Positions 20,308-28,609 of a stretch of 64,000 nt of DNA are shown here, one piece after another. The DNA comes from Terriglobia bacterium. GTDB lineage: Bacteria > Acidobacteriota > Terriglobia > Terriglobales > Acidobacteriaceae. The notes below the pieces were generated by a model. It was not told where the DNA came from and made no database searches. It saw nothing but the letters and a program-made list of their open reading frames with translations. Made by a program: the position numbers and the translations under genes. How positions within the stretch are numbered: the stretch's first letter is position 1; every line of letters starts with the position of its first letter. The stretch covers positions 62,001 to 126,000 of the forward strand of contig JAIQEU010000020.1 of the NCBI GenBank assembly GCA_020073665.1, read 5' to 3'.

Positions 20308-21186
20308 CTAGTAGAACAACAACGCCACCCAATACACCCCGCCAGGATAGCTGGCGCTACTGGCGTAACAGGCGCCCACCGAGAAAGCGCGGAGCGATCG
20401 ATCACCAATGATTTTGGCCGCGCTCGACGGCAACGTTTCCGGTTGCATGCTGGTGTAACGCAGGAGGTAGCGTGCCGCGAGGGGCGTGGTGTTCAGAGAA
20501 TTGGCTTTGGCCATAGCGCAGGCGGCGGCCGGGGCGCTGGCGCCGTCGTCGCGCTGTAGGGTTGGGAGGGCTTGCTGTTGGCGCATCTGGGCCACACTCG
20601 CGGCTACCAGGTCTTGCGCGGTTTGGGCGGAAAACTGCGGCAGATTATGTCCGAAATCCTGGGCGACAAAAAGCACGTTCCCACTGCGAACCACGCCGAA
20701 TCCGGCGACGTTATAAGCGGGATTGAGCAGGTTCTCGCGGTGCGGTGGCGAGGTCATCAGCGTGTCCTGCGCCTGGTCCGCGCTGGCGGCGTAGGCTACG
20801 TTCTCGCCGACTCGATCAAACCGCAGGTTGCTGGCAGCTGCCACACGTTGGGTTAGGGAGGGCTCACCGGGAAACTGGTGGGAGAGCTGTTGTTGCGCGG
20901 CCATGTCGGCAGCGTGGGCGCGGGCGGCCTGGGCCAGTCCTTCGTCGGACTCGAGCGGACGCAGGCCCGACTGCTCCCGGGCCTGGTTCGCCAGTTCGAA
21001 CAGCTGGCGCTCGGCTTCGGCGTCATAGTTGGGGGAGGGCTGTAACTGGTATGACGCAGAGGTCAGCTTGGCTTTACCCGCAGGCCGTGGTGACGGGGCC
21101 TTGGCGGGAACTGCGCCGCTGTTCAATGCCATCGCGAGAGAAGCTAAGAGCGCCCAGACCATAGAGTGGTCTTCTGATGCAAACAT
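20308..21186 (-). CDS. CAP/SCP-like (YkwD-type) exported protein
   Basis: About 292 residues from the ATG at 21186; a second ATG at 21162 (MVWALLASLAMALNSG) gives a shorter signal sequence and is equally possible. The CAP domain spans about 55-170: ANQAREQSGLRPLESDEGLA, MAAQQQLSHQFPG, RVGENVAYA, SPPHRENLLNPAYNVAGFGV. It contains the two conserved His and the Glu of the CAP cavity. The C-terminal ~100 residues, with two or three Cys, are not recognised. Secreted or periplasmic; the role of bacterial CAP proteins is mostly unknown. Confidence 0.85.
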   Translation of the reverse strand: MFASEDHSMVWALLASLAMALNSGAVPAKAPSPRPAGKAKLTSASYQLQPSPNYDAEAERQLFELANQAREQSGLRPLESDEGLAQAARAHAADMAAQQQLSHQFPGEPSLTQRVAAASNLRFDRVGENVAYAASADQAQDTLMTSPPHRENLLNPAYNVAGFGVVRSGNVLFVAQDFGHNLPQFSAQTAQDLVAASVAQMRQQQALPTLQRDDGASAPAAACAMAKANSLNTTPLAARYLLRYTSMQPETLPSSAAKIIGDRSLRAFSVGACYASSASYPGGVYWVALLFY

Positions 21187-21248
21187 CGGCAAAAGTTCTG
21201 CTTTGCTTCCCTCACGCTAGACTCTAGAATCGAGGCCAGCACCTTACT

Positions 21249-22592
21249 ATGGGGACATTCCTGCTGGGCATACTCGTGCTCTCCAACCTAGTACTTCTGG
21301 TACTGGCTCTTGGGCTGTTTCGGCGCATTAAAAATATCCCGCAAACTACTGATATTACACAGCTTGCAGATCAAGCATCGAAGGTACATGAGTCGCTTTC
21401 GCAAAGGTTCACTGCGGCGACTGCCGATATGGCCATGCGGCTGGAGGGCACAAAGGGTGACCTACGGCAGGAAGTAACCGACCGGCTCAGCGAGGGATTC
21501 AAGGAAATACAGGGCATGGTGGCAAATCAGCTCACCAGCGGCCGGCGCGAGCAGGCCCAGGACATGCGGGAGGCGCGCACCGAGCTGACCAGTTCGCTGG
21601 CCCTAACCACCTCTCAACTCAAGACCGAGTTTGACGGGCTGAACCAGAAGACCGCGCAAAGCCTCGACGCCATTCGCGATCGGGTGGATGCCAAGCTGCT
21701 CGCCATCACCGAACAGGTGCAGCAGAAACTGGATCAGAACATCAAAGAGGGCTTTGCTCAGTTCGAAAAAGTGCAGCAGCACCTGAAGGCCGCCGAGGAA
21801 CAGTTGCGGGAAGTGGGGGCGCTGGGGCATTCCATCAACGACTTGAATAATTTGCTCAAGCTGCCGCACCTGCGCGGGCAATTCGGCGAGGCCAGCCTGG
21901 AACGGCTGCTGGCGGACTTCCTGCCGGCAAACATGTTCGAGATTCAGGCCCAGCTTCCGGATGGTGGCGGGCGTCCTGACGCACTGATTCAGTTTCCCGA
22001 TCGCCGTCTGCCGATTGATGCCAAGTTTCCGCGCGAGCAGGTGCTGGCGTTGTTTGAGAGCAACGTGGAATCCGAGATCGCGGAAGCGCGCGTGGAGTTT
22101 GTGCGGGTGATGAAGACCGAGGCCCGGCGCATCAAGGCGTACATTCAGCCGGAGCATGGCACCACCGATATCGCGCTGATGTATCTACCTAGCGAGACGC
22201 TGTACATGGAAGCCGTCCGCAACCGCGACTTAGCCGACTGGCTGAACCAGCAGCACGTGTTTCCGGTCTCGCCAAATACTTTGCTGATGACGCTGCAGAC
22301 CATCGCGCTGGTGCACAAGTGGTACGAGGTTGCCAGCCGCTTCGAGAAGAGCCGCGTGGAGCTGGCGAAAGCGCAAAAGTCGTTCGACTTTTTCCAGAAC
22401 CAGTTCGAAAACGTCGGCAAGAGCCTGAACAAAGCGCAGGAAGCGTTCGCCACTGCGGAGCGACATCTGAAGAGCTATCGCGGAAAAGTCACTGTGCTGA
22501 GCGGGCAGGAGCAGTTGGAACTGGATCCTTCACCAGAGAGTGGCAAGGGCGACCAAGACATCCTTCCTCTGACCGACAAAGCCAGCGCGTAA
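21249..22592 (+). CDS. rmuC: DNA recombination protein RmuC
   Basis: 447 residues. One N-terminal membrane anchor (LLGILVLSNLVLLVLALGLF) is followed by a long coiled coil (about 45-195) and the RmuC nuclease-fold domain (about 200-400): LPHLRGQFGEASLERLLADF, LPDGGGRPDALIQFPDRRLP, IDAKFPREQ. The Asp and DAK of the PD-(D/E)XK type are present. RmuC limits inversion at short inverted repeats in E. coli, of interest next to so many such repeats here. It is divergent from the CAP gene. Confidence 0.92.
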   Translation: MGTFLLGILVLSNLVLLVLALGLFRRIKNIPQTTDITQLADQASKVHESLSQRFTAATADMAMRLEGTKGDLRQEVTDRLSEGFKEIQGMVANQLTSGRREQAQDMREARTELTSSLALTTSQLKTEFDGLNQKTAQSLDAIRDRVDAKLLAITEQVQQKLDQNIKEGFAQFEKVQQHLKAAEEQLREVGALGHSINDLNNLLKLPHLRGQFGEASLERLLADFLPANMFEIQAQLPDGGGRPDALIQFPDRRLPIDAKFPREQVLALFESNVESEIAEARVEFVRVMKTEARRIKAYIQPEHGTTDIALMYLPSETLYMEAVRNRDLADWLNQQHVFPVSPNTLLMTLQTIALVHKWYEVASRFEKSRVELAKAQKSFDFFQNQFENVGKSLNKAQEAFATAERHLKSYRGKVTVLSGQEQLELDPSPESGKGDQDILPLTDKASA

Positions 22593-22600
22593 CGACGACT

Positions 22601-23092
22601 TCAGTCGGCAGCCGGTTCCGTCGATCGCCTGTCCGAACTCAAGTGCTCCGCTCCCCGCACCTCCCAAATGCCATCGAACTTGACGAAATAGGGCTCGACT
22701 GAAATATCGGGAAAGTTCGCGGCCAGCAGCGCGCCTGCACGAAGCAACTCAGTGCGATGATGCTCCGCTTCCGCGGCCGTGTCTCCCTTGAAATGTGCGA
22801 GGCCGCCGTAGGTGGCGCAGTCGGAATGGCTCATTACCAGCACGCGTTTGGTCTGGTGCAGGCGAATCGACATGCGGACTTGTTCCAGGATGAAGTCCTG
22901 CTCGAAATCATTGCGGGGGGAGGCTAGTGTTTTGGCGCCCCCGGCTACAATGATCATGTCAGGACGCGCAATTCCCTGTTTCTGCAGAAATTTCCGGACG
23001 GCTGTGCTGATGCGGTAGTCGAAGCAGCACAGCACGGCGGCATCGGCCACGTAGGGGGCGCTGGGGGAATCGAAGTGGAAGGCTTTACGCAT
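22601..23092 (-). CDS. Beta-carbonic-anhydrase-like protein
   Basis: 163 residues. The zinc motif CxDxR (C23, D25, R27 in CCFDYRIS) and HxxC (H89, C92 in MSHSDCATYGG), plus IIVAGGAKTL, match beta-carbonic anhydrases. At 163 residues it is shorter than most, and the N-terminal arm is missing. It could hydrate CO2 or be a catalytically altered paralogue. The ATG lies 5 bp after the potassium-channel stop, so it is the last gene of the flotillin-PspA-channel cluster. Downstream it converges with rmuC. Confidence 0.75.
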   Translation of the reverse strand: MRKAFHFDSPSAPYVADAAVLCCFDYRISTAVRKFLQKQGIARPDMIIVAGGAKTLASPRNDFEQDFILEQVRMSIRLHQTKRVLVMSHSDCATYGGLAHFKGDTAAEAEHHRTELLRAGALLAANFPDISVEPYFVKFDGIWEVRGAEHLSSDRRSTEPAAD

Positions 23093-23097
23093 GTAGT

Positions 23098-24051
23098 CTA
23101 CCTATTCAGTCGGGTCTTCAAGGCGATATCAAGTCTGCACTTATCGTGATACGGGCACAGTACGCACTGCTCTGTCGTCGTGGAAATGATTCGGTTCAGA
23201 ACGGGGGAGAGGTAACCAGCCTTCTGTCTGTCGGACATACTCAGCAGAAAATTGTTGTCAACACCTTCGTAGCGACCACAGCGAATGTCCCCTAGCGCGT
23301 AACGCTTACTGGCAAAGAGAAGATCGCCAGTAGCCTCAAAATATCCTCGAACTGTCAATTCCACATATTCCCCGCTAACCCCCGAAACATTCTCCGGCGA
23401 CATGATCAATGGTTGGAAATCTCCGCTCGGAGCTGTGGACGGCTGGCCGCCATTGGATTTGGTCTTGATGGCTAAGAGCCGTAACGGCGGCACTATGGCA
23501 GGGTGGTAATCGAACTTAACGAGACTTGTCTGAGTGTCGTAGAGAGAGTTTGTGTCGTTGGGCCCTTTGGGTTGGACGAGTTGGATTTCAACTTTCACTT
23601 CGCGCAGCTGGTCAGCATCGGTGTTGATGAAGCGGAACCAGAAATGGTGCTGCGCCAGCACATACACGAGGTGATCCGCAAAAACGATCGGCGCAGAACG
23701 CTTCAGCGCCTTGAACACAACAATTCCAAGCATCACAGCATTCATCGTCAATCCGAGAAATCCTTGGACAACAGAGAGCCAGCGGCCGCTACCTTTCGGC
23801 AAATAGTCTCCATATCCTACCGTAGATTGCGTAGTGAAAGAAAAGTACACCAAGCTCGTGAATTGAGTTTCACAGCTACCGTCTGGCCTAGTCACAGCGC
23901 AATCCGATACACCCTTGTACACGACAGCGAAAACCAACCCGGAGACCGCATAAAACCCAAGCCACATGCACAGCAGCGTACCGACCGTTCGCTGCGTCAC
24001 CCATAATCGAAGTCGGGAACTGAAGGAAACAGAAACATTCGGCATCGTCAC
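23098..24051 (-). CDS. KirBac-like inward-rectifier-type potassium channel
   Basis: 317 residues from GTG 24051 (GAGGAG 8 bp upstream). Two membrane helices (about 22-46 and 92-115) flank a pore helix and the filter TVGYGD (77-82). The C-terminal half is a cytoplasmic IRK-like beta domain starting at FADHLVYVLAQHHFWFRFIN. The extreme C-terminus carries C296, C299, H302 and C305, possibly a metal site and not usual in KirBac proteins. Two Cys (51, 60) lie in the outer turret. GC content is clearly lower than in pspA and the flotillin gene, suggesting separate ancestry. It is 3 bp from pspA. Confidence 0.85.
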   Translation of the reverse strand: MTMPNVSVSFSSRLRLWVTQRTVGTLLCMWLGFYAVSGLVFAVVYKGVSDCAVTRPDGSCETQFTSLVYFSFTTQSTVGYGDYLPKGSGRWLSVVQGFLGLTMNAVMLGIVVFKALKRSAPIVFADHLVYVLAQHHFWFRFINTDADQLREVKVEIQLVQPKGPNDTNSLYDTQTSLVKFDYHPAIVPPLRLLAIKTKSNGGQPSTAPSGDFQPLIMSPENVSGVSGEYVELTVRGYFEATGDLLFASKRYALGDIRCGRYEGVDNNFLLSMSDRQKAGYLSPVLNRIISTTTEQCVLCPYHDKCRLDIALKTRLNR

Positions 24052-24054
24052 TCT

Positions 24055-24714
24055 CTACGCTCCTCGTTTCGTCTTCATCTCCGCTAGCAACTGCTCGATG
24101 CGGTCTTCTTTTTCAAGCGCTGCCAAGCGATCTTCCACATCATCGGCTGCGATTTCAGATTTGGCCTGGCTCACCGCCTCAGTGTGGGCCACTTTGCGTT
24201 TCATGCGGTCGAAGGTGACGGCTTTGGAGTTGTCGCCCATGGCCATCTTGGCGTCGCTGGCTTTGCCAACGGCGCGAGCGCGGCGCTGCTGGGCAATCAG
24301 CAGGTCGGCGCGGGCCTCGGCCTCGGTCAACTTTTGCTGCAGCTGGCGCAATGCCGCCTTCAGGTTCTCGACCTGGGCTTTCTGGTCGGTCACCTGCTGG
24401 GCGAAGCTGTCGCTGAGTTCGCGATAGCTCTCGACGCGTTGCAGCGCGGCGCGGGCCAGGTCGTCTTGTTTCTTGTCCACAGCTAACTCCGCTTTGCGCG
24501 TCCATTCCGCGACTTTGTCTTCATTCTCCTTCTGCTTTTTCTCCAGCAGGTGCTGGTCGGCGATGGCGATCGCGACCTGCGTTTTCACCTGCAGAAGCTG
24601 GTTCTGCATGTCGAGAATGACTTGCTTGATCATCTTTTCCGGTTCTTCGGCCTTGTCAATCAGGTCGTTGAGGTTGGCCCGGACCAGGGTGGAAACTCTC
24701 TCTAGTAATGCCAT
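24055..24714 (-). CDS. pspA: PspA/IM30 (ESCRT-III-like) membrane-repair protein
   Basis: 219 residues, the family size, almost entirely coiled coil. It starts with the amphipathic helix LLERVSTLVRANLNDLIDKA and continues with EKMIKQVILDMQNQLLQVKT, the PspA signature region. PspA polymers coat damaged inner membrane and limit proton leak. No PspF, PspB or PspC is adjacent; instead the cluster carries flotillin and NfeD/YqiJ-like genes, a partnership known from other bacteria. GGAGT precedes the ATG. Confidence 0.93.
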   Translation of the reverse strand: MALLERVSTLVRANLNDLIDKAEEPEKMIKQVILDMQNQLLQVKTQVAIAIADQHLLEKKQKENEDKVAEWTRKAELAVDKKQDDLARAALQRVESYRELSDSFAQQVTDQKAQVENLKAALRQLQQKLTEAEARADLLIAQQRRARAVGKASDAKMAMGDNSKAVTFDRMKRKVAHTEAVSQAKSEIAADDVEDRLAALEKEDRIEQLLAEMKTKRGA

Positions 24715-24738
24715 GATGGACTCCTTTTCAAAATCGGC

Positions 24739-24759
24739 CGTCAGCTATCAGCCTTCAGC
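24739..24759 (-). repeat. Heptamer array, word xxGCTGA
   Basis: Three adjacent 7-bp units on the minus strand (GAGCTGA first, TAGCTGA last) share GCTGA. The first unit overlaps the codon before the TGA stop of the glycine-zipper gene, so the stop codon lies inside the array. Confidence 0.55.
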
Positions 24760-24952
24760 TCTTTCGTACTGCCTGGCGCGGACTGTCCGCCGCGCAGGCG
24801 GTTTGTTTTCGATTGGCGATTGCGCTTCCGATGGCCAGGCCCACGCCAGTGCCGATCGCAAGCCATGCTGGCATGTGGGTGGCGGTCATCATTGCCGCTC
24901 CGATGCCGGCACCCAGCACGACGCCGAGACCGAGGTATTTTGGCTTTTCCAT
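24755..24952 (-). CDS. Glycine-zipper membrane miniprotein
   Basis: 65 residues from the ATG at 24952, preceded by AGGAGGAGAGG. The sequence has two short glycine-rich membrane segments (YLGLGVVLGAGIGAAMM and LAIGTGVGLAIGSAIANR), a pattern of glycine-zipper proteins, and a polar tail. It lies between the flotillin and pspA genes in the same direction. A small partner of the flotillin or PspA assembly is an inference from position. Confidence 0.65.
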   Translation of the reverse strand: MEKPKYLGLGVVLGAGIGAAMMTATHMPAWLAIGTGVGLAIGSAIANRKQTACAADSPRQAVRKS

Positions 24953-24977
24953 AATCCTCTCCTCCTGCCTCCCTTTG

Positions 24978-25020
24978 CGTGGGAGGGCGTGACGCCCTCC
25001 CAACCGCCGGCGAGACGCCG
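24978..25020. repeat. Two perfect hairpins between flotillin and miniprotein genes
   Basis: A 10-bp perfect stem (24978-24987 with 24991-25000, loop TGA) and a 7-bp stem GCCGGCG/CGCCGGC (25004-25020) stand directly after the flotillin gene. Neither is followed by a T-run. They could reduce read-through from the flotillin gene to pspA or stabilise the mRNA. Confidence 0.6.
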
Positions 25021-25026
25021 GCACCA

Positions 25027-26460
25027 CTACTTACTCGGCGGCGTGGGCGGTTTTTCTGTCTTGTCGCCGATTTGGCGCACCTTGCCCAGCATCTCGCCAA
25101 GGTTCATTCCAGACAGCGTCTCGAACAATGCCGGTACTTGTGCCGCCATCTTGGTGAGATCGCCAGTGACTTTGTTCAAGCCGGCAGCGCCATCGTTGCC
25201 GGTCGAGACCACGGTGATCCTGTCCACGTTGGCCAGAGGCGCAGCCAGTGCCCGCACGATCTCGGGCAGTCCGCTAAATAGTTTGTCGATGACCGCGGCC
25301 TGGTTGTACTCCTGGTAGGCCTCGGCCTTGACGTTCATTGCCTTGGCTTCGGCTTCACCCTTCTTGAAGATGATTTCGGCTTCGGCCTCACCCTGCGCCC
25401 GGATCGCAGACGCATGACCATCGGCTTCCATGGTCAAGCGCTGCTTCTCGGCTTCGGCAAGCGTTTCGATGCGCTGACGCTCAATCTCCGCTCCCTTGAG
25501 GACGGTGGCGATGAGCTCTTTCTCGCGGCGCAGGATTTCCGCTTCCTGCACCTTGACCTGCTGCTCTTTCTCCACCTGTTGCACCTTGACCGCCTCGGCC
25601 ACGACTTGCTGCTGCATGACGTTGGTCTGGATGTCGTAGGCCTTGTCGGCCTGGGCCTGCTGCTTCTTGGTGACTTCAAGGTACTGGGCTTTCTTGACCT
25701 CGAGATCGCGCTGCGATTCAGCCTGCTTGGCCAGCGATAGAGTCTCGGCCAACACACGTTCCTGGTCGGCTTGCGCGCGGGCCACGGCGGCTTCTCGCGT
25801 GGCCAGGGCGCGCCGGATGGCAGTGTCACGTTCCGCTTCCGCGGTGGCCACGTCGGCATCGCGCTTGATGCGGGCCACGTCCGGCTTGCCCATGTTAGAG
25901 ATGTACTCGTTCTTGTCTTTCACCTCTTTGATGGTGAACGAGATGACTTCCAGGCCCATCTTGTTCATGTCGTCGGCGCAGGTGGAGCGCATGCGGTCGC
26001 CCACCATCTCCGGCTGCTTCACGATTTCTTCCACCGTGAGCTGGCCGATGATGCCGCGCAAGTGGCCTTCCATCACCAGCCGGATCAGGCCTTCCCGCTC
26101 CTGGTCGGACTTAGTAAGGAATTGCTCGGCCGCGGTGAGAATCGACTCGGTGTCCGACTTCACCTTGATCTGCGCCACCGCCTCGACTGTGACGGCCACG
26201 CCTTGCTTGGTGTAGAGGTCCTGCTGCGGAGCGACGTCAAATGACATCAACTCCAGTGAAAGGTCGCGGCAATTCTCGATCATGGGGAAAATGACTGTGC
26301 CTCGCCCTTTCACCACGCGGGTTCCGCGGAAGCCGTACACCACCAGGGCTTCATGGGGTCCGGCCTTGCGGTAGAGCCGGGCCAGCATGGCCATCAACAG
26401 CATGATGGCCATAATCATTAGTCCCACTAAGACCCATATTTCGATTGCTATGCCAAACAT
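25027..26460 (-). CDS. Flotillin-like SPFH protein (YqiK/FloT type)
   Basis: 477 residues. N-terminal membrane segment (IWVLVGLMIMAIMLLMAMLA), then the SPFH/Band-7 domain (about 35-210; GPHEALVVYGFRG, GRGTVIFPMIENCRDLSLEL), and a long Ala-Glu-rich coiled coil (about 215-400, repeats such as AEAEII and KGEAEAKAMNVKAEAYQEYN). The C-terminal ~70 residues include DRITVVSTGNDGAAGLNKVT, as in flotillins. It scaffolds ordered membrane domains. It follows the DUF1648 gene and, two genes up, a YqiJ/NfeD-like gene, the usual flotillin partner. Confidence 0.93.
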   Translation of the reverse strand: MFGIAIEIWVLVGLMIMAIMLLMAMLARLYRKAGPHEALVVYGFRGTRVVKGRGTVIFPMIENCRDLSLELMSFDVAPQQDLYTKQGVAVTVEAVAQIKVKSDTESILTAAEQFLTKSDQEREGLIRLVMEGHLRGIIGQLTVEEIVKQPEMVGDRMRSTCADDMNKMGLEVISFTIKEVKDKNEYISNMGKPDVARIKRDADVATAEAERDTAIRRALATREAAVARAQADQERVLAETLSLAKQAESQRDLEVKKAQYLEVTKKQQAQADKAYDIQTNVMQQQVVAEAVKVQQVEKEQQVKVQEAEILRREKELIATVLKGAEIERQRIETLAEAEKQRLTMEADGHASAIRAQGEAEAEIIFKKGEAEAKAMNVKAEAYQEYNQAAVIDKLFSGLPEIVRALAAPLANVDRITVVSTGNDGAAGLNKVTGDLTKMAAQVPALFETLSGMNLGEMLGKVRQIGDKTEKPPTPPSK

Positions 26461-26493
26461 ATCGTCTCCTCTCAGAAAGCGATCGACCCAAAC

Positions 26494-27369
26494 TCAGTGA
26501 GCGAACTGCTTCATCATGTCCAGATCACGCACAATGCGTTCCGGCTCGGAATGTCCCAGGAAAACGTCGCCGTGCTCGGTCTTGATGCGAACGCCCTTGT
26601 TGCCCCAGACGTAAGCACGGTCTTCGCCGACACCACGAATTCCGTAGCCGCCCATGAAGCTCCAATCGCTGGCGGCATACTCCTTGATCTGCTCCAGCGG
26701 AACGGAGCGCAGCCGCAACCCCATGGTGGAAATCTCCAGTCCGTGCCGGGTGAAGCGATAGCGGAAACCGCTCCAGGTCAGGCCGACAGCGAACAGCATG
26801 ATGAGACAGCCCATACCCAGGGCGATGCGTAGCCCGGCGGCCGGAGCAAACAAAACCACTCCGATCATCGGTAGCGCAGGTGGCAACATGACCAGCAACC
26901 AGGCACGCTGGTGATGGACTTCCTCGGCCAGGACTTCCCCGTCTGGAAGCGGCGTGCCGCGTTTGGCTCCCAGGAACACGATTGAGAGCACCAGCACACC
27001 CCCGAGCATGACGCCCACCACCGGCGCCACGTTGAACGGAGTACCGTAGAGGTTGAAATCGAGCATCGCCATCTGCGTCCAGACCAGTAGACCTATGACC
27101 AGGTAGAAGATGCCGAGCATGGCCCACGAACCGGCGTCGGTTTTCTTCACCCGCGAAGCCACCCAGGTGGCGACCCCGGCCATCAACACCAACAGGCCGA
27201 GTCCAAAGCCCAGCGCGACTTCACGCGACATCCAGCCATTCGGGTGATTGGCCATGTCGAAGTGGGTGGCCATGCGGGCCGGCAACTGGTCCCACACTTG
27301 CGCATAGCTGATCGCCACCAGCGGGATCGACAGCCAGAGCAACCCGGTCAACATGCGGTAGAGCTTCAT
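26494..27369 (-). CDS. DUF1648 membrane protein with C-terminal PH-like domain
   Basis: 291 residues from the ATG at 27369 (AAGG 6 bp upstream); the frame is open 61 codons further but that part is not protein-like. The N-terminus has the DUF1648 pattern seen in SdpI-type immunity proteins (YAQVWDQLPARMATHFDMAN, HPNGWMSREVAL). Five or so membrane helices follow, and the last ~100 residues look like a soluble PH-like domain (RYRFTRHGLEISTMGLRLRS, VPLEQIKEYAA). The function is unknown. Position in the cluster suggests membrane-stress defence, as SdpI relatives protect against membrane-active peptides. Confidence 0.8.
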   Translation of the reverse strand: MKLYRMLTGLLWLSIPLVAISYAQVWDQLPARMATHFDMANHPNGWMSREVALGFGLGLLVLMAGVATWVASRVKKTDAGSWAMLGIFYLVIGLLVWTQMAMLDFNLYGTPFNVAPVVGVMLGGVLVLSIVFLGAKRGTPLPDGEVLAEEVHHQRAWLLVMLPPALPMIGVVLFAPAAGLRIALGMGCLIMLFAVGLTWSGFRYRFTRHGLEISTMGLRLRSVPLEQIKEYAASDWSFMGGYGIRGVGEDRAYVWGNKGVRIKTEHGDVFLGHSEPERIVRDLDMMKQFAH

Positions 27370-27427
27370 AGCAAACCTTTCTGCAAGGCCCGTAGCGTGG
27401 GGGGGCCGGAAAATTCCGATGCTGCGG

Positions 27428-28054
27428 CTACTGGCGGTCCTCTCCCGCCATCTCCTCCCAGAAGCGCACGTAGGCAATTCCCTTCTCGTAACGCGTGACC
27501 ACAACCTCCGCGCCTTTCGCCATGGCCACACCTTCCTCGCTGCGCGCGCCACAGGTGCGCCGCGTGCCCGCCTGCGAATAGATGATTTCTCCAGTGCCGC
27601 CTTCGCGGATCGGATTACTGAGCTTGCCCAGCACCCCGACCATCTCGAAGTCGGCAGGATCCAGATTTTCTTCTCTCGACATCAGCACCCTGGTCAGGAA
27701 CAGGAACACGATAGCGGCGCCCACCAACCCGGCTGCGATCGCCAGCACCAGGCCCAGCGCGAACCACACGCTGGAATAACGGGTCAGCAGGAATCCGGTT
27801 CCGCCGAACCAGGCCAGAAATGCGGTCAAAGTCACAAAGTTGAACGGTGACACCTGCGCAGGATGCACCGGCGTGCCCACGCGTGCGGCGCCCGCAGCCG
27901 GAGCGTGGCCTACGGGCAGATGCGGCGCCCCCGCATGCATGTGGGGAAGATGCGGCAAGTGCAGATGCCACTGCAAGGCTCCAGCCAGAAACGACATCAG
28001 GCTGAGGGCGAACCCCACCACGAAACAGATGAGGTAGAAATCCGACCAGGTCAT
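27428..28054 (-). CDS. YqiJ/NfeD-like membrane protein
   Basis: 208 residues. An N-terminal membrane segment is followed by a His/Pro-rich loop (LPHLPHMHAGAPHLPVGH), two further membrane segments (FNFVTLTAFLAWFGGTGFLL and LGLVLAIAAGLVGAAIVFLF) and a C-terminal OB-fold-like domain (about 135-200; GVLGKLSNPIREGGTGEIIY). This matches YqiJ, the partner encoded next to YqiK flotillins. The His-rich loop could bind metal. Its ATG overlaps the Xre regulator stop by 4 bp. Confidence 0.82.
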   Translation of the reverse strand: MTWSDFYLICFVVGFALSLMSFLAGALQWHLHLPHLPHMHAGAPHLPVGHAPAAGAARVGTPVHPAQVSPFNFVTLTAFLAWFGGTGFLLTRYSSVWFALGLVLAIAAGLVGAAIVFLFLTRVLMSREENLDPADFEMVGVLGKLSNPIREGGTGEIIYSQAGTRRTCGARSEEGVAMAKGAEVVVTRYEKGIAYVRFWEEMAGEDRQ

Positions 28055-28563
28055 AATGTCCGCCTCCCCTCTCCCGTCGCGGGCCTAGGGCGTGCCGGCT
28101 CCGGACGCAGCGCCTCCAGTAGACGCTCGGCCAACCCGGGCGTGTCGAGAATCGCTCCCAGCAGCAGAAAACAGCGGCGCGTATCCTTCTCGCGAGCCGC
28201 CTTGAGCAAAACGTCGCTCACTTCTGGATCGCTGGCGAAACGCTCCGAGCCCTGCAACAGCCAGACATCGAGCTTGCCCTCGGTGGTGCGCAGATCCGAC
28301 ACCAGTTCGGTGTGGTAGCCCTCGGGGTCGTCCACCAGGAAACCAGGGTGAACTTTGAAGAAGCGCGCGACCAACGTGCGGGTGGACTGGGTCATGTGCG
28401 GACGGGTACCGCTCTCCATCTGCGACAGATAGGACTGGCTGATGCTCTTGCCCAGTTCCTTCTTGACCGCTTTAACGATTTCCTGCTGCGTCATGGGACG
28501 ACCCAGGCCGCGCAGGGAACCCTCCACTTCGCGGAGGTAGCGTAATTTCTCGCCAAGTTTCAT
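28051..28563 (-). CDS. Xre-family regulator heading the flotillin-PspA cluster
   Basis: 170 residues. The N-terminal helix-turn-helix (about 1-75) contains LGEKLRYLREVEGSLRGLGR, PMTQQEIVKAV and ISQSYLSQMESGTRPHMTQS. The C-terminal half is helical (RTTEGKLDVWLLQGSERFAS, LLEALRPEPARP) and may sense a ligand or partner. A strong promoter with imperfect inverted repeats lies immediately upstream, so autoregulation is likely. It is translationally coupled to the YqiJ-like gene. A single-polypeptide repressor controlling the eight-gene cluster is the simplest reading. Confidence 0.88.
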   Translation of the reverse strand: MKLGEKLRYLREVEGSLRGLGRPMTQQEIVKAVKKELGKSISQSYLSQMESGTRPHMTQSTRTLVARFFKVHPGFLVDDPEGYHTELVSDLRTTEGKLDVWLLQGSERFASDPEVSDVLLKAAREKDTRRCFLLLGAILDTPGLAERLLEALRPEPARPRPATGEGRRTL

Positions 28564-28579
28564 ATTGCAACTCGCGATT

Positions 28580-28609
28580 GTTATATCGCAATTTGTGATT
28601 TTCTGTCAA
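28580..28609 (-). promoter_or_regulatory. Promoter of the Xre-flotillin-PspA cluster
   Basis: Perfect -35 TTGACA (28604-28609), 18-bp spacer, -10 TATAAC (28580-28585), one mismatch from consensus. TTGCGAT and ATCGCGA lie as an imperfect inverted repeat around the -10, a likely operator for the Xre protein. The predicted 5' leader is only about 10 bases, with no Shine-Dalgarno sequence. Confidence 0.75.

What the first reader, a model, noticed from the sequence alone, without database searches (positions are those of the whole stretch)
22601..28563. Eight-gene membrane-maintenance cluster ending in a K+ channel and a carbonic-anhydrase-like protein
Xre regulator, YqiJ/NfeD-like, DUF1648-PH, flotillin, glycine-zipper miniprotein, PspA, KirBac-like channel and beta-CA-like genes share one strand, with 4-bp overlaps or few-base gaps at several joints. 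Flotillin with NfeD/YqiJ and PspA is a known association; adding an inward-rectifier channel and a CA-like protein under an Xre regulator is, as far as I know, not described. It suggests coupled control of membrane integrity, K+ flux and pH or CO2.
Basis: partly seen in the sequence, partly recalled or inferred. Interest (0 to 1): 0.75.

Follow-up and report, generated by a model that had tools for sequence, protein, structure and literature searches.

The report
Membrane-stress operon with odd tail genes
A soil bacterium carries a known set of membrane-repair genes (PspA, flotillin and partners) followed by a carbonic anhydrase gene, a pairing that recurs in related bacteria, and by a potassium-channel gene seen at this spot in this genome only.

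Summary
The eight genes are real, on one strand, tightly packed and well bounded. Six (EspR-like Xre, NfeD/YuaF-like, DUF1648, flotillin, small Gly-zipper protein, PspA) form a cassette typical of the family: Xre, NfeD, flotillin and pspA lie in this order in 108 of 108 distinct loci with enough sequence, window included. Popp et al. 2022 already described this core for Acidobacteriota. New here are a conserved promoter with tandem near-palindromes before the regulator gene, and the last two genes, which differ. The beta-carbonic anhydrase recurs: it follows pspA within 2 kb in 16 of 107 other loci, and two genomes of another class carry NfeD-flotillin-carbonic anhydrase operons without pspA beside them. 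I found no report of this link. The Kir-like channel does not recur: it is in none of the 107 other loci, no Kir relative examined lies near cassette genes, no close relative was found in the collections searched, and its codon use is the most deviant of 39 ORFs. It looks like a lineage-specific insertion between pspA and the anhydrase gene. K+ coupling thus rests on one genome; a flotillin/PspA-carbonic anhydrase link is the new, testable part.

The parts
28561..28609 (-). Conserved promoter (TTGACA, 18 nt, TATAAC) with two operator-like 15-bp near-palindromes 21 bp apart; the second runs up to the start codon
   Evidence: Weight matrix positive in 115 of 117 upstream regions, window 50.7, best of 117 shuffled -9.2 (matrix trained on the same regions). 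Promoter score >=10 of 12 in 90 of 117 against 1.8% of shuffles
28051..28563 (-). Xre/EspR-like regulator, 170 aa
   Evidence: Profile A2 matches four EspR sequences, E 3.6e-7 to 5.4e-7
27428..28054 (-). NfeD/YuaF-like membrane protein, 208 aa
   Evidence: Profile A3 matches YuaF 2K14, E 2.2e-4; 7 of 17 family members match PF01957 at E<=0.1, best 0.0018
26494..27369 (-). DUF1648 membrane protein, 291 aa (optional member)
   Evidence: PF07853 E 3.8e-10; detected upstream of pspA in 35 of 108 loci, window included
25027..26460 (-). Flotillin, 477 aa
   Evidence: PF01145 E 9.5e-30 and PF15975 E 1.2e-8; NCBIfam FloT model E 3.4e-100 but below its cut-off
24755..24952 (-). Small glycine-zipper-like protein, 65 aa (weakly conserved, optional)
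   Evidence: PF13441 E 0.09, below cut-off; similar small ORFs before pspA in many loci
24055..24714 (-). PspA/IM30 protein, 219 aa
   Evidence: PF04012 E 1.5e-37; orthologue-like hits 48-90% identical in the family sample
23098..24051 (-). Kir/KirBac-like K+ channel, 317 aa, TVGYGD filter; lineage-specific insertion
   Evidence: PF07885 E 1.3e-11, PF01007 E 4.4e-5; KirBac3.1 E 3e-7 over residues 27-160; lowest leave-one-out codon score of 39 ORFs, z -2.5
22601..23092 (-). Beta-carbonic-anhydrase-like protein (Pro_CA_2), 163 aa, CFDYR and HSDC metal-site motifs
   Evidence: PF20393 E 3e-15; model pLDDT 87; all 19 PDB matches at E<=0.001 are beta-CAs

Best explanation
This is a local envelope-stress operon with its own regulator. 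The EspR-like protein binds tandem near-palindromes over its own promoter and (inferred) keeps the operon low until envelope stress relieves it. Flotillin with the NfeD-like protein forms a membrane platform that recruits PspA to damaged membrane (inferred, by analogy with B. subtilis YdjI and PspA). Downstream of pspA lies a slot where lineages add effectors on the same transcript. A beta-carbonic anhydrase is the recurring one; because the same family also sits in separate NfeD-flotillin operons, I take it to work with the flotillin platform, giving fast CO2/bicarbonate/proton exchange at stressed membrane (inferred). In this genome a foreign-looking Kir-like channel has also entered the slot, 3 nt after pspA and 5 nt before the CA gene, where it would be co-expressed and could rebalance membrane potential (inferred, weakly supported).
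For: Shown: order Xre-NfeD-flotillin-pspA in 108 of 108 distinct loci, window included; conserved promoter/near-palindromes in 115 of 117 upstream regions; one exact copy of the pattern in the own genome, none with one mismatch, and of nine with two mismatches the seven read lie in ORFs and score below -20; EspR and YuaF profile matches; CA within 2 kb after pspA in 16 of 107 other loci, in Terriglobales and in Bryobacterales-, Bryobacteraceae- and Solibacteraceae-labelled genomes; 8 of 20 CA-bearing other genomes of the family sample have it just after pspA; NfeD-flotillin-CA operons with a 4-bp overlap and 1- and 7-nt gaps in G234 and G215, the only two of 41 genomes of their class with that CA; CA fold and metal motifs. 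Literature: YdjI, an SPFH protein, is required for PspA membrane recruitment (PMC8581546, passages).
Against: No expression, binding or enzyme data. 91 of 107 other loci have no CA within 2 kb; 12 of 20 CA-bearing family genomes have none seen beside pspA; 13 of 15 CA matches outside the family have no cassette gene nearby. The slot also holds varied genes (DUF4019, CopG-type, LPG-synthase-TM). One pspA-linked CA (L309) has lost both metal-site motifs. The hairpins at 24981-25020 could separate expression of the two halves.
Confidence: 0.6

Rival explanations
1. Kir and CA are both passengers: the region between pspA and the rmuC/CAP genes is a permissive insertion zone and neither gene works with PspA or flotillin.
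For: Downstream content varies widely between genomes; Kir is unique to this genome among 108 loci and codon-atypical; CA sits elsewhere in 12 of 20 family genomes and away from cassette genes in 13 of 15 matches outside the family.
Against: CA is on the same strand and within 150 nt of pspA in 6 of the 19 other linked loci, in several deep branches; the same CA family ends NfeD-flotillin operons in another class; in two genomes without a pspA match it follows a DUF1648 gene like the cassette's by 40 and 85 nt.
Confidence: 0.25
2. One reading: a conserved eight-gene module that jointly controls membrane integrity, K+ flux and pH/CO2.
For: Tight packing in this genome; a different PspA operon type with a potassium channel exists (PMC11237479); three palsa-labelled genomes have a non-Kir ion-channel gene about 2-2.5 kb downstream of pspA.
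Against: No Kir beside pspA in 107 other loci; no cassette gene near 20 Kir relatives within up to 9 kb; no close Kir relative in the family and phylum samples, GTDB pattern scan, plasmids or viral contigs.
Confidence: 0.07
3. Assembly error places the Kir gene here.
For: It is a compositional outlier without a close relative.
Against: Intact 317-aa frame joined by 3 and 5 nt to intact neighbours; the pspA, CA, rmuC, CAP order around it matches L115, L253, L257 and L261; the 154-kb contig belongs to a 62-contig genome estimated 100% complete with 1.87% contamination.
Confidence: 0.03

Closest known systems
Acidobacteriota pspA - band 7/FloT - NfeD - HTH neighbourhood (Popp et al. 2022, PMC9239133; passages and section 8 read)
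   Same: Same core: PspA with flotillin, NfeD and HTH regulator genes in the same phylum (11 of 19 PspAs had Band7_Flot nearby).
   Different: In its main text 'potassium', 'ion channel' and 'carbonic' do not occur; no operator described in what I read.
PspA/CesT-Tir - flotillin - YqiJ/YuaF operons (Ravi et al. 2024, PMC11237479; passages read)
   Same: PspA with a TM-band7-flotillin protein and a YqiJ/YuaF protein.
   Different: There with CesT/Tir and an AAA+ ATPase; here with an EspR-like regulator, DUF1648 and, at times, CA. 'Carbonic' does not occur in its main text.
PspA - ATP-grasp - YjfL operons with a potassium channel (same paper)
   Same: A K+ channel gene in a PspA operon.
   Different: [quoted passage not shown] the eight genes here match none of those others.
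B. subtilis pspA-ydjGHI (PMC8581546; passages read)
   Same: An SPFH protein encoded with PspA and needed to recruit it to the membrane.
   Different: SigW control, other partners; YdjI lacks a membrane anchor of its own.
Flotillin-associated rhodopsin clusters (PMC10308929; abstract and passages read)
   Same: A flotillin gene co-transcribed with a membrane protein of the proteorhodopsin family, so a precedent for flotillin paired with a possible ion-handling partner.
   Different: Marine bacteria, rhodopsin partner; 'carbonic' does not occur in its main text.
EspR of Mycobacterium tuberculosis (solved structures, sequence match only)
   Same: HTH region aligns over about 68 residues.
   Different: Other phylum; the match does not cover the C-terminal half.

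Membership tests
PspA/IM30 | PspA_IM30 domain over the whole length | tested here: met
   PF04012 129.8 bits against cut-off 33.9, residues 3-217
PspA/IM30 | Membrane binding and ESCRT-III-like polymers | not testable with these tools
   Needs experiment
Bacterial flotillin (FloT) | SPFH domain plus flotillin C-terminal domain | tested here: met
   PF01145 and PF15975 above their cut-offs
Bacterial flotillin (FloT) | NCBIfam FloT equivalog cut-off | tested here: not met
   336 bits against 700: a flotillin, but not FloT by that rule
NfeD/YuaF | C-terminal domain related to YuaF | tested here: met
   Family profile matches 2K14 at E 2.2e-4; the window protein alone has no Pfam hit
EspR-type regulator | EspR-like HTH | tested here: met
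   E 3.6e-7 to 5.4e-7 to four EspR sequences
EspR-type regulator | EspR C-terminal dimerisation domain (recalled) | tested here: inconclusive
   The match ends at profile position 92 of 170
Kir/KirBac channel | Two-TM pore with TxGYG filter | tested here: met
   PF07885 and PF01007 above cut-off; TVGYGD in the sequence
Kir/KirBac channel | Cytoplasmic Kir C-terminal domain | tested here: inconclusive
   KirBac similarity reaches residue 160 and, in weaker matches, 188; no Pfam hit for the rest; single-sequence model failed, pLDDT 37.5
Kir/KirBac channel | N-terminal LLNRDGSFNV-like stretch of acidobacterial KirBacs | tested here: not met
   Absent in the window protein, present in most of the homologues aligned
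Beta-carbonic anhydrase | CxDxR and HxxC metal-site motifs (motif recalled) | tested here: met
   C23, D25, R27, H89, C92 invariant in the 12-row alignment; L309, not in that alignment, lacks both motifs
Beta-carbonic anhydrase | Beta-CA fold | tested here: met
   All 19 PDB matches at E<=0.001 are beta-CAs, query TM-scores about 0.5
Beta-carbonic anhydrase | Classical Pro_CA domain at Pfam cut-off | tested here: not met
   PF00484 13.9 bits against 25.7; it belongs to PF20393 Pro_CA_2
Beta-carbonic anhydrase | CO2 hydration activity | not testable with these tools
   Needs an enzyme assay

The most novel reading that the evidence does not exclude
In Acidobacteriota, flotillin/NfeD platforms (with or without PspA) recruit a beta-carbonic anhydrase of the Pro_CA_2 family as a dedicated partner, so that membrane repair is coupled to proton and bicarbonate balance; a dedicated EspR-like autoregulator with tandem operators drives the PspA form, and lineages can plug in further ion-handling genes after pspA, here a divergent Kir channel.
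Probability: 0.28. Interest if true: 0.62.

Novelty: new variant of a known kind. Interest (0 to 1): 0.42.

Why it matters
PspA and flotillin act on damaged or reorganised membrane, but few partners that handle ions or pH are known. A carbonic anhydrase encoded next to pspA in many Acidobacteriota, and separately next to NfeD-flotillin in another class, gives a concrete partner to test. The conserved operator gives a simple handle on how these cassettes are switched.

Tried and rejected
Kir as a conserved cassette member: rejected. Three weak channel hits near pspA (L262, L266, L278) were followed up: a different channel type, about 2-2.5 kb away; in L262 and L266, where I listed the ORFs, other genes lie between. 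Kir structure: the single-sequence model is useless (pLDDT 37.5), so no fold search was made with it. Chance promoter: the simple scanner missed the promoter (its -10 ends in C), but comparison with relatives shows it. Other operators in the genome: nine two-mismatch hits against 0 for the reversed control pattern; the seven read lie in ORFs and score below -20, two were not read. Flotillin-Gly-zipper hairpin as a genomic repeat element: rejected for the second hairpin, one copy in the genome. CA as a purely vertical companion of the cassette: the tree needs 6 changes of the linked/unlinked label (5-7 in bootstraps, at least 3 forced by well-supported branches; 6 of 500 shuffles as low), so gains, losses or moves recur; two L261 fragments under 110 aa of 33 rows were dropped, 31 used. 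Foreign origin of Kir rests on composition alone: its GC3 (0.591) is lowest of 39 ORFs but only just (next 0.594, 0.595).

Caveats on counts: the family sample is 150 genomes, own included, drawn evenly from a larger family; 62 of 150 have no PspA match. I fetched 80 PspA stretches; L122 gave no PspA ORF, and weaker or partial PspA hits were not fetched. The 80 GTDB loci are the best 80 of 435 flotillin matches, so they lean to close relatives. Loci were de-duplicated by identical pspA DNA: 159 stretches, 133 distinct, window included. The family and phylum samples overlap. Kir neighbourhood: 20 Kir-like matches were fetched with up to 9 kb flanks, fewer where contigs end; the other Kir loci (L002-L059) have 1.5 kb flanks, and further listed matches were not fetched. 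'Unlinked' CA rows were judged on 1.5-kb flanks; where a pspA exists it lies on another contig. Some ORFs listed downstream of pspA look spurious. CA matches outside the family: 15; 12 were read with up to 6 kb flanks, 3 only with 1.5 kb.
Full report
Observation. The joints are a 4-bp overlap (Xre/NfeD), gaps of 58, 33, 74 and 40 nt through the middle, and gaps of 3 nt (PspA-Kir) and 5 nt (Kir-CA). Upstream stands a terminator-like hairpin at 28802-28773; downstream rmuC converges, its stop 8 nt from the CA stop. The unit is well bounded.

Core cassette. I searched 150 family genomes with PspA (88 matched), fetched 80 stretches around it and added 80 named GTDB loci found with a flotillin alignment. 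After removing identical pspA DNA, 133 distinct loci remained, window included. In all 108 that hold at least 4.5 kb upstream of pspA, Xre, NfeD and flotillin lie upstream on the same strand, in the order Xre-NfeD-flotillin-pspA; DUF1648 is detected in 35 of 108. Record titles name Terriglobales, Candidatus Sulfotelmatobacter, Acidobacteriaceae and Bryobacterales/Solibacteraceae MAGs; one is labelled Gammaproteobacteria, probably a mislabel since its flotillin is 88% and its PspA 81% identical to the window's. This core is not new: Popp et al. 2022 (PMC9239133; passages and section 8 read) report PspA with band 7/FloT, NfeD and HTH regulators in Acidobacteriota. Ravi et al. 2024 (PMC11237479, passages) report PspA-flotillin-YqiJ operons elsewhere.

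Regulator and promoter. A profile of the Xre family matches the M. tuberculosis regulator EspR in the PDB (E about 4e-7; positions 25-92 of 170). The NfeD family profile matches YuaF 2K14 (E 2e-4). Upstream of the Xre gene, 90 of 117 regions carry a sigma-70-type promoter scoring at least 10 of 12, against 1.8% of shuffles. A weight matrix built there is positive in 115 of 117 regions (50.7 in the window), and the best of 117 shuffled regions scores -9.2; the matrix was trained on these regions, so this shows conservation and is not an independent test. Read by eye, the consensus holds a 15-bp near-palindrome, ATTGCAAATTGCAAT, and a looser copy, ATTGCGATTTGCAAT, 21 bp further on; the first touches the -10 and the second ends at the start codon. 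In the own genome the pattern has one exact hit, none with one mismatch and nine with two (reversed control 0); the seven of these read lie in ORFs with scores below -20. I infer a local autoregulator and a very short leader; its signal is unknown.

Channel. The 317-aa protein has a two-TM pore with TVGYGD, passes the Pfam Ion_trans_2 and IRK cut-offs and aligns to KirBac3.1 over residues 27-160. The rest of its cytoplasmic part is too divergent to assign, it lacks the N-terminal stretch of most acidobacterial KirBacs, and it has a CVLCPYHDKC cluster near its C-terminus that the KirBac rows lack. In the family sample (149 other genomes) and phylum sample (395 others, overlapping) the matches are partial, 22-43% identical. 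A GTDB-wide scan that finds close relatives only, plasmids and viral contigs gave none. Its leave-one-out codon score is the lowest of 39 window ORFs (z -2.5; -2.3). Of 108 loci with at least 2 kb downstream of pspA, only the window has it. Twenty Kir relatives with up to 9 kb flanks have no Xre, NfeD, flotillin or PspA nearby. Only one genome of the genus is held. The reading that fits best is an acquired gene between pspA and CA in a locus whose surrounding order (pspA, CA, rmuC, CAP) matches L115, L253, L257 and L261.

Carbonic anhydrase. The 163-aa protein belongs to PF20393. In a 12-row alignment C23, D25, R27, H89 and C92 are invariant, though one pspA-linked protein outside it (L309) has lost both motifs. 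The AlphaFold2 model (pLDDT 87) finds only beta-carbonic anhydrases among its 19 PDB matches at E<=0.001. In the family sample 20 of 149 other genomes have it; in 8 of these (G010, G027, G028, G036, G049, G106, G126, G146) it follows pspA on the same strand within about 1 kb. Over distinct loci with 2 kb downstream, 16 of 107 others have it within 2 kb. Six linked loci (L306, L309, L310, L311, L313, L316) carry divergent CAs; four of these are labelled Bryobacterales, Bryobacteraceae or Solibacteraceae. In two genomes with no PspA match (G045, G076) it follows a DUF1648 gene related to the cassette's. The tree shows repeated gain or loss of linkage (6 changes).

A second, separate link turned up on checking. 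A CA profile found 15 matches outside the family in a 392-genome phylum sample. In two of the 15 (G234, G215) the CA is the third gene of an NfeD-flotillin-CA set: 4-bp overlap, then 1- and 7-nt gaps, same strand, with no PspA or Xre in the stretch. Pfam confirms flotillin and Pro_CA_2 in both; the NfeD calls rest on the profile and a weak Pfam hit in one. These CAs are 59% identical to each other, and they are the only 2 of 41 genomes of that class with this CA. The other 13 have no cassette gene nearby. G234 and G215 are not in the window's class, so the CA-flotillin pairing is not just inherited position in one lineage.

Literature on the link. 'Carbonic anhydrase' with 'phage shock protein' and 'flotillin' gave 0 papers; with 'PspA' and 'operon' 10, judged unrelated from titles and abstract starts; with 'NfeD' and 'flotillin' one paper holds all three terms, and its passages put the CA in carboxysome genes, apart from nfeD-floT (PMC7522525). 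'Carbonic' is absent from the main texts of PMC9239133, PMC11237479, PMC10308929 and PMC2636767. Searches on KirBac or flotillin with potassium channels found no such cluster apart from PMC11237479 (listings only). Subscription papers are not in the library.

Mechanism. Shown: shared strand, tight packing, conserved promoter and near-palindromes, recurrence of CA by pspA and by flotillin. Inferred: repression by the EspR-like protein, PspA recruitment by the flotillin platform (by analogy with YdjI, PMC8581546, passages), proton/bicarbonate support by the CA, and K+ conductance by the channel. The two hairpins between flotillin and the small gene (fold z -2.2) could set different levels for the two halves.

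Verdict. The core is ordinary for the phylum; CA is a recurring, apparently unreported partner; the Kir channel is a one-genome addition. 'Eight-gene cluster' is right as anatomy but not as a conserved system.

Noticed in passing
L343:3874-6420 (G234) and L344:5950-8517 (G215): NfeD-flotillin-carbonic anhydrase three-gene operons without PspA in another class of Acidobacteriota.
   Followed up: partly
28561-28609 and upstream regions of 117 loci, window included: Strongly conserved near-palindromes overlapping promoter and start of the EspR-like gene; the short spacing implies a nearly leaderless transcript.
   Followed up: partly
24981-25020: Two back-to-back GC-rich hairpins between flotillin and the Gly-zipper gene, no T run; the second is single-copy in the genome. 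Possible RNA processing or attenuation site.
   Followed up: partly
L176:1525-2907 and L177:469-1956: The same CA family directly follows a DUF1648 gene in two genomes that gave no PspA match.
   Followed up: partly
L114:9716-10213, L116:4829-5281: A DUF4019 protein sits between pspA and CA in two relatives: another candidate accessory of this slot.
   Followed up: no
L262:14875-16062, L266:14418-15617, L278:14287-15486: A non-Kir ion-channel gene about 2-2.5 kb downstream of pspA in three palsa-labelled MAGs.
   Followed up: partly
L248 (PKXS01000002.1): Contig labelled Gammaproteobacteria carries the acidobacterial cassette with CA, rmuC and CAP genes; likely a mislabelled or contaminated MAG.
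   Followed up: no
20308-22592: rmuC and a gene downstream of it (a CAP-domain protein by eye, not tested) recur as neighbours of the cassette in the family.
   Followed up: no
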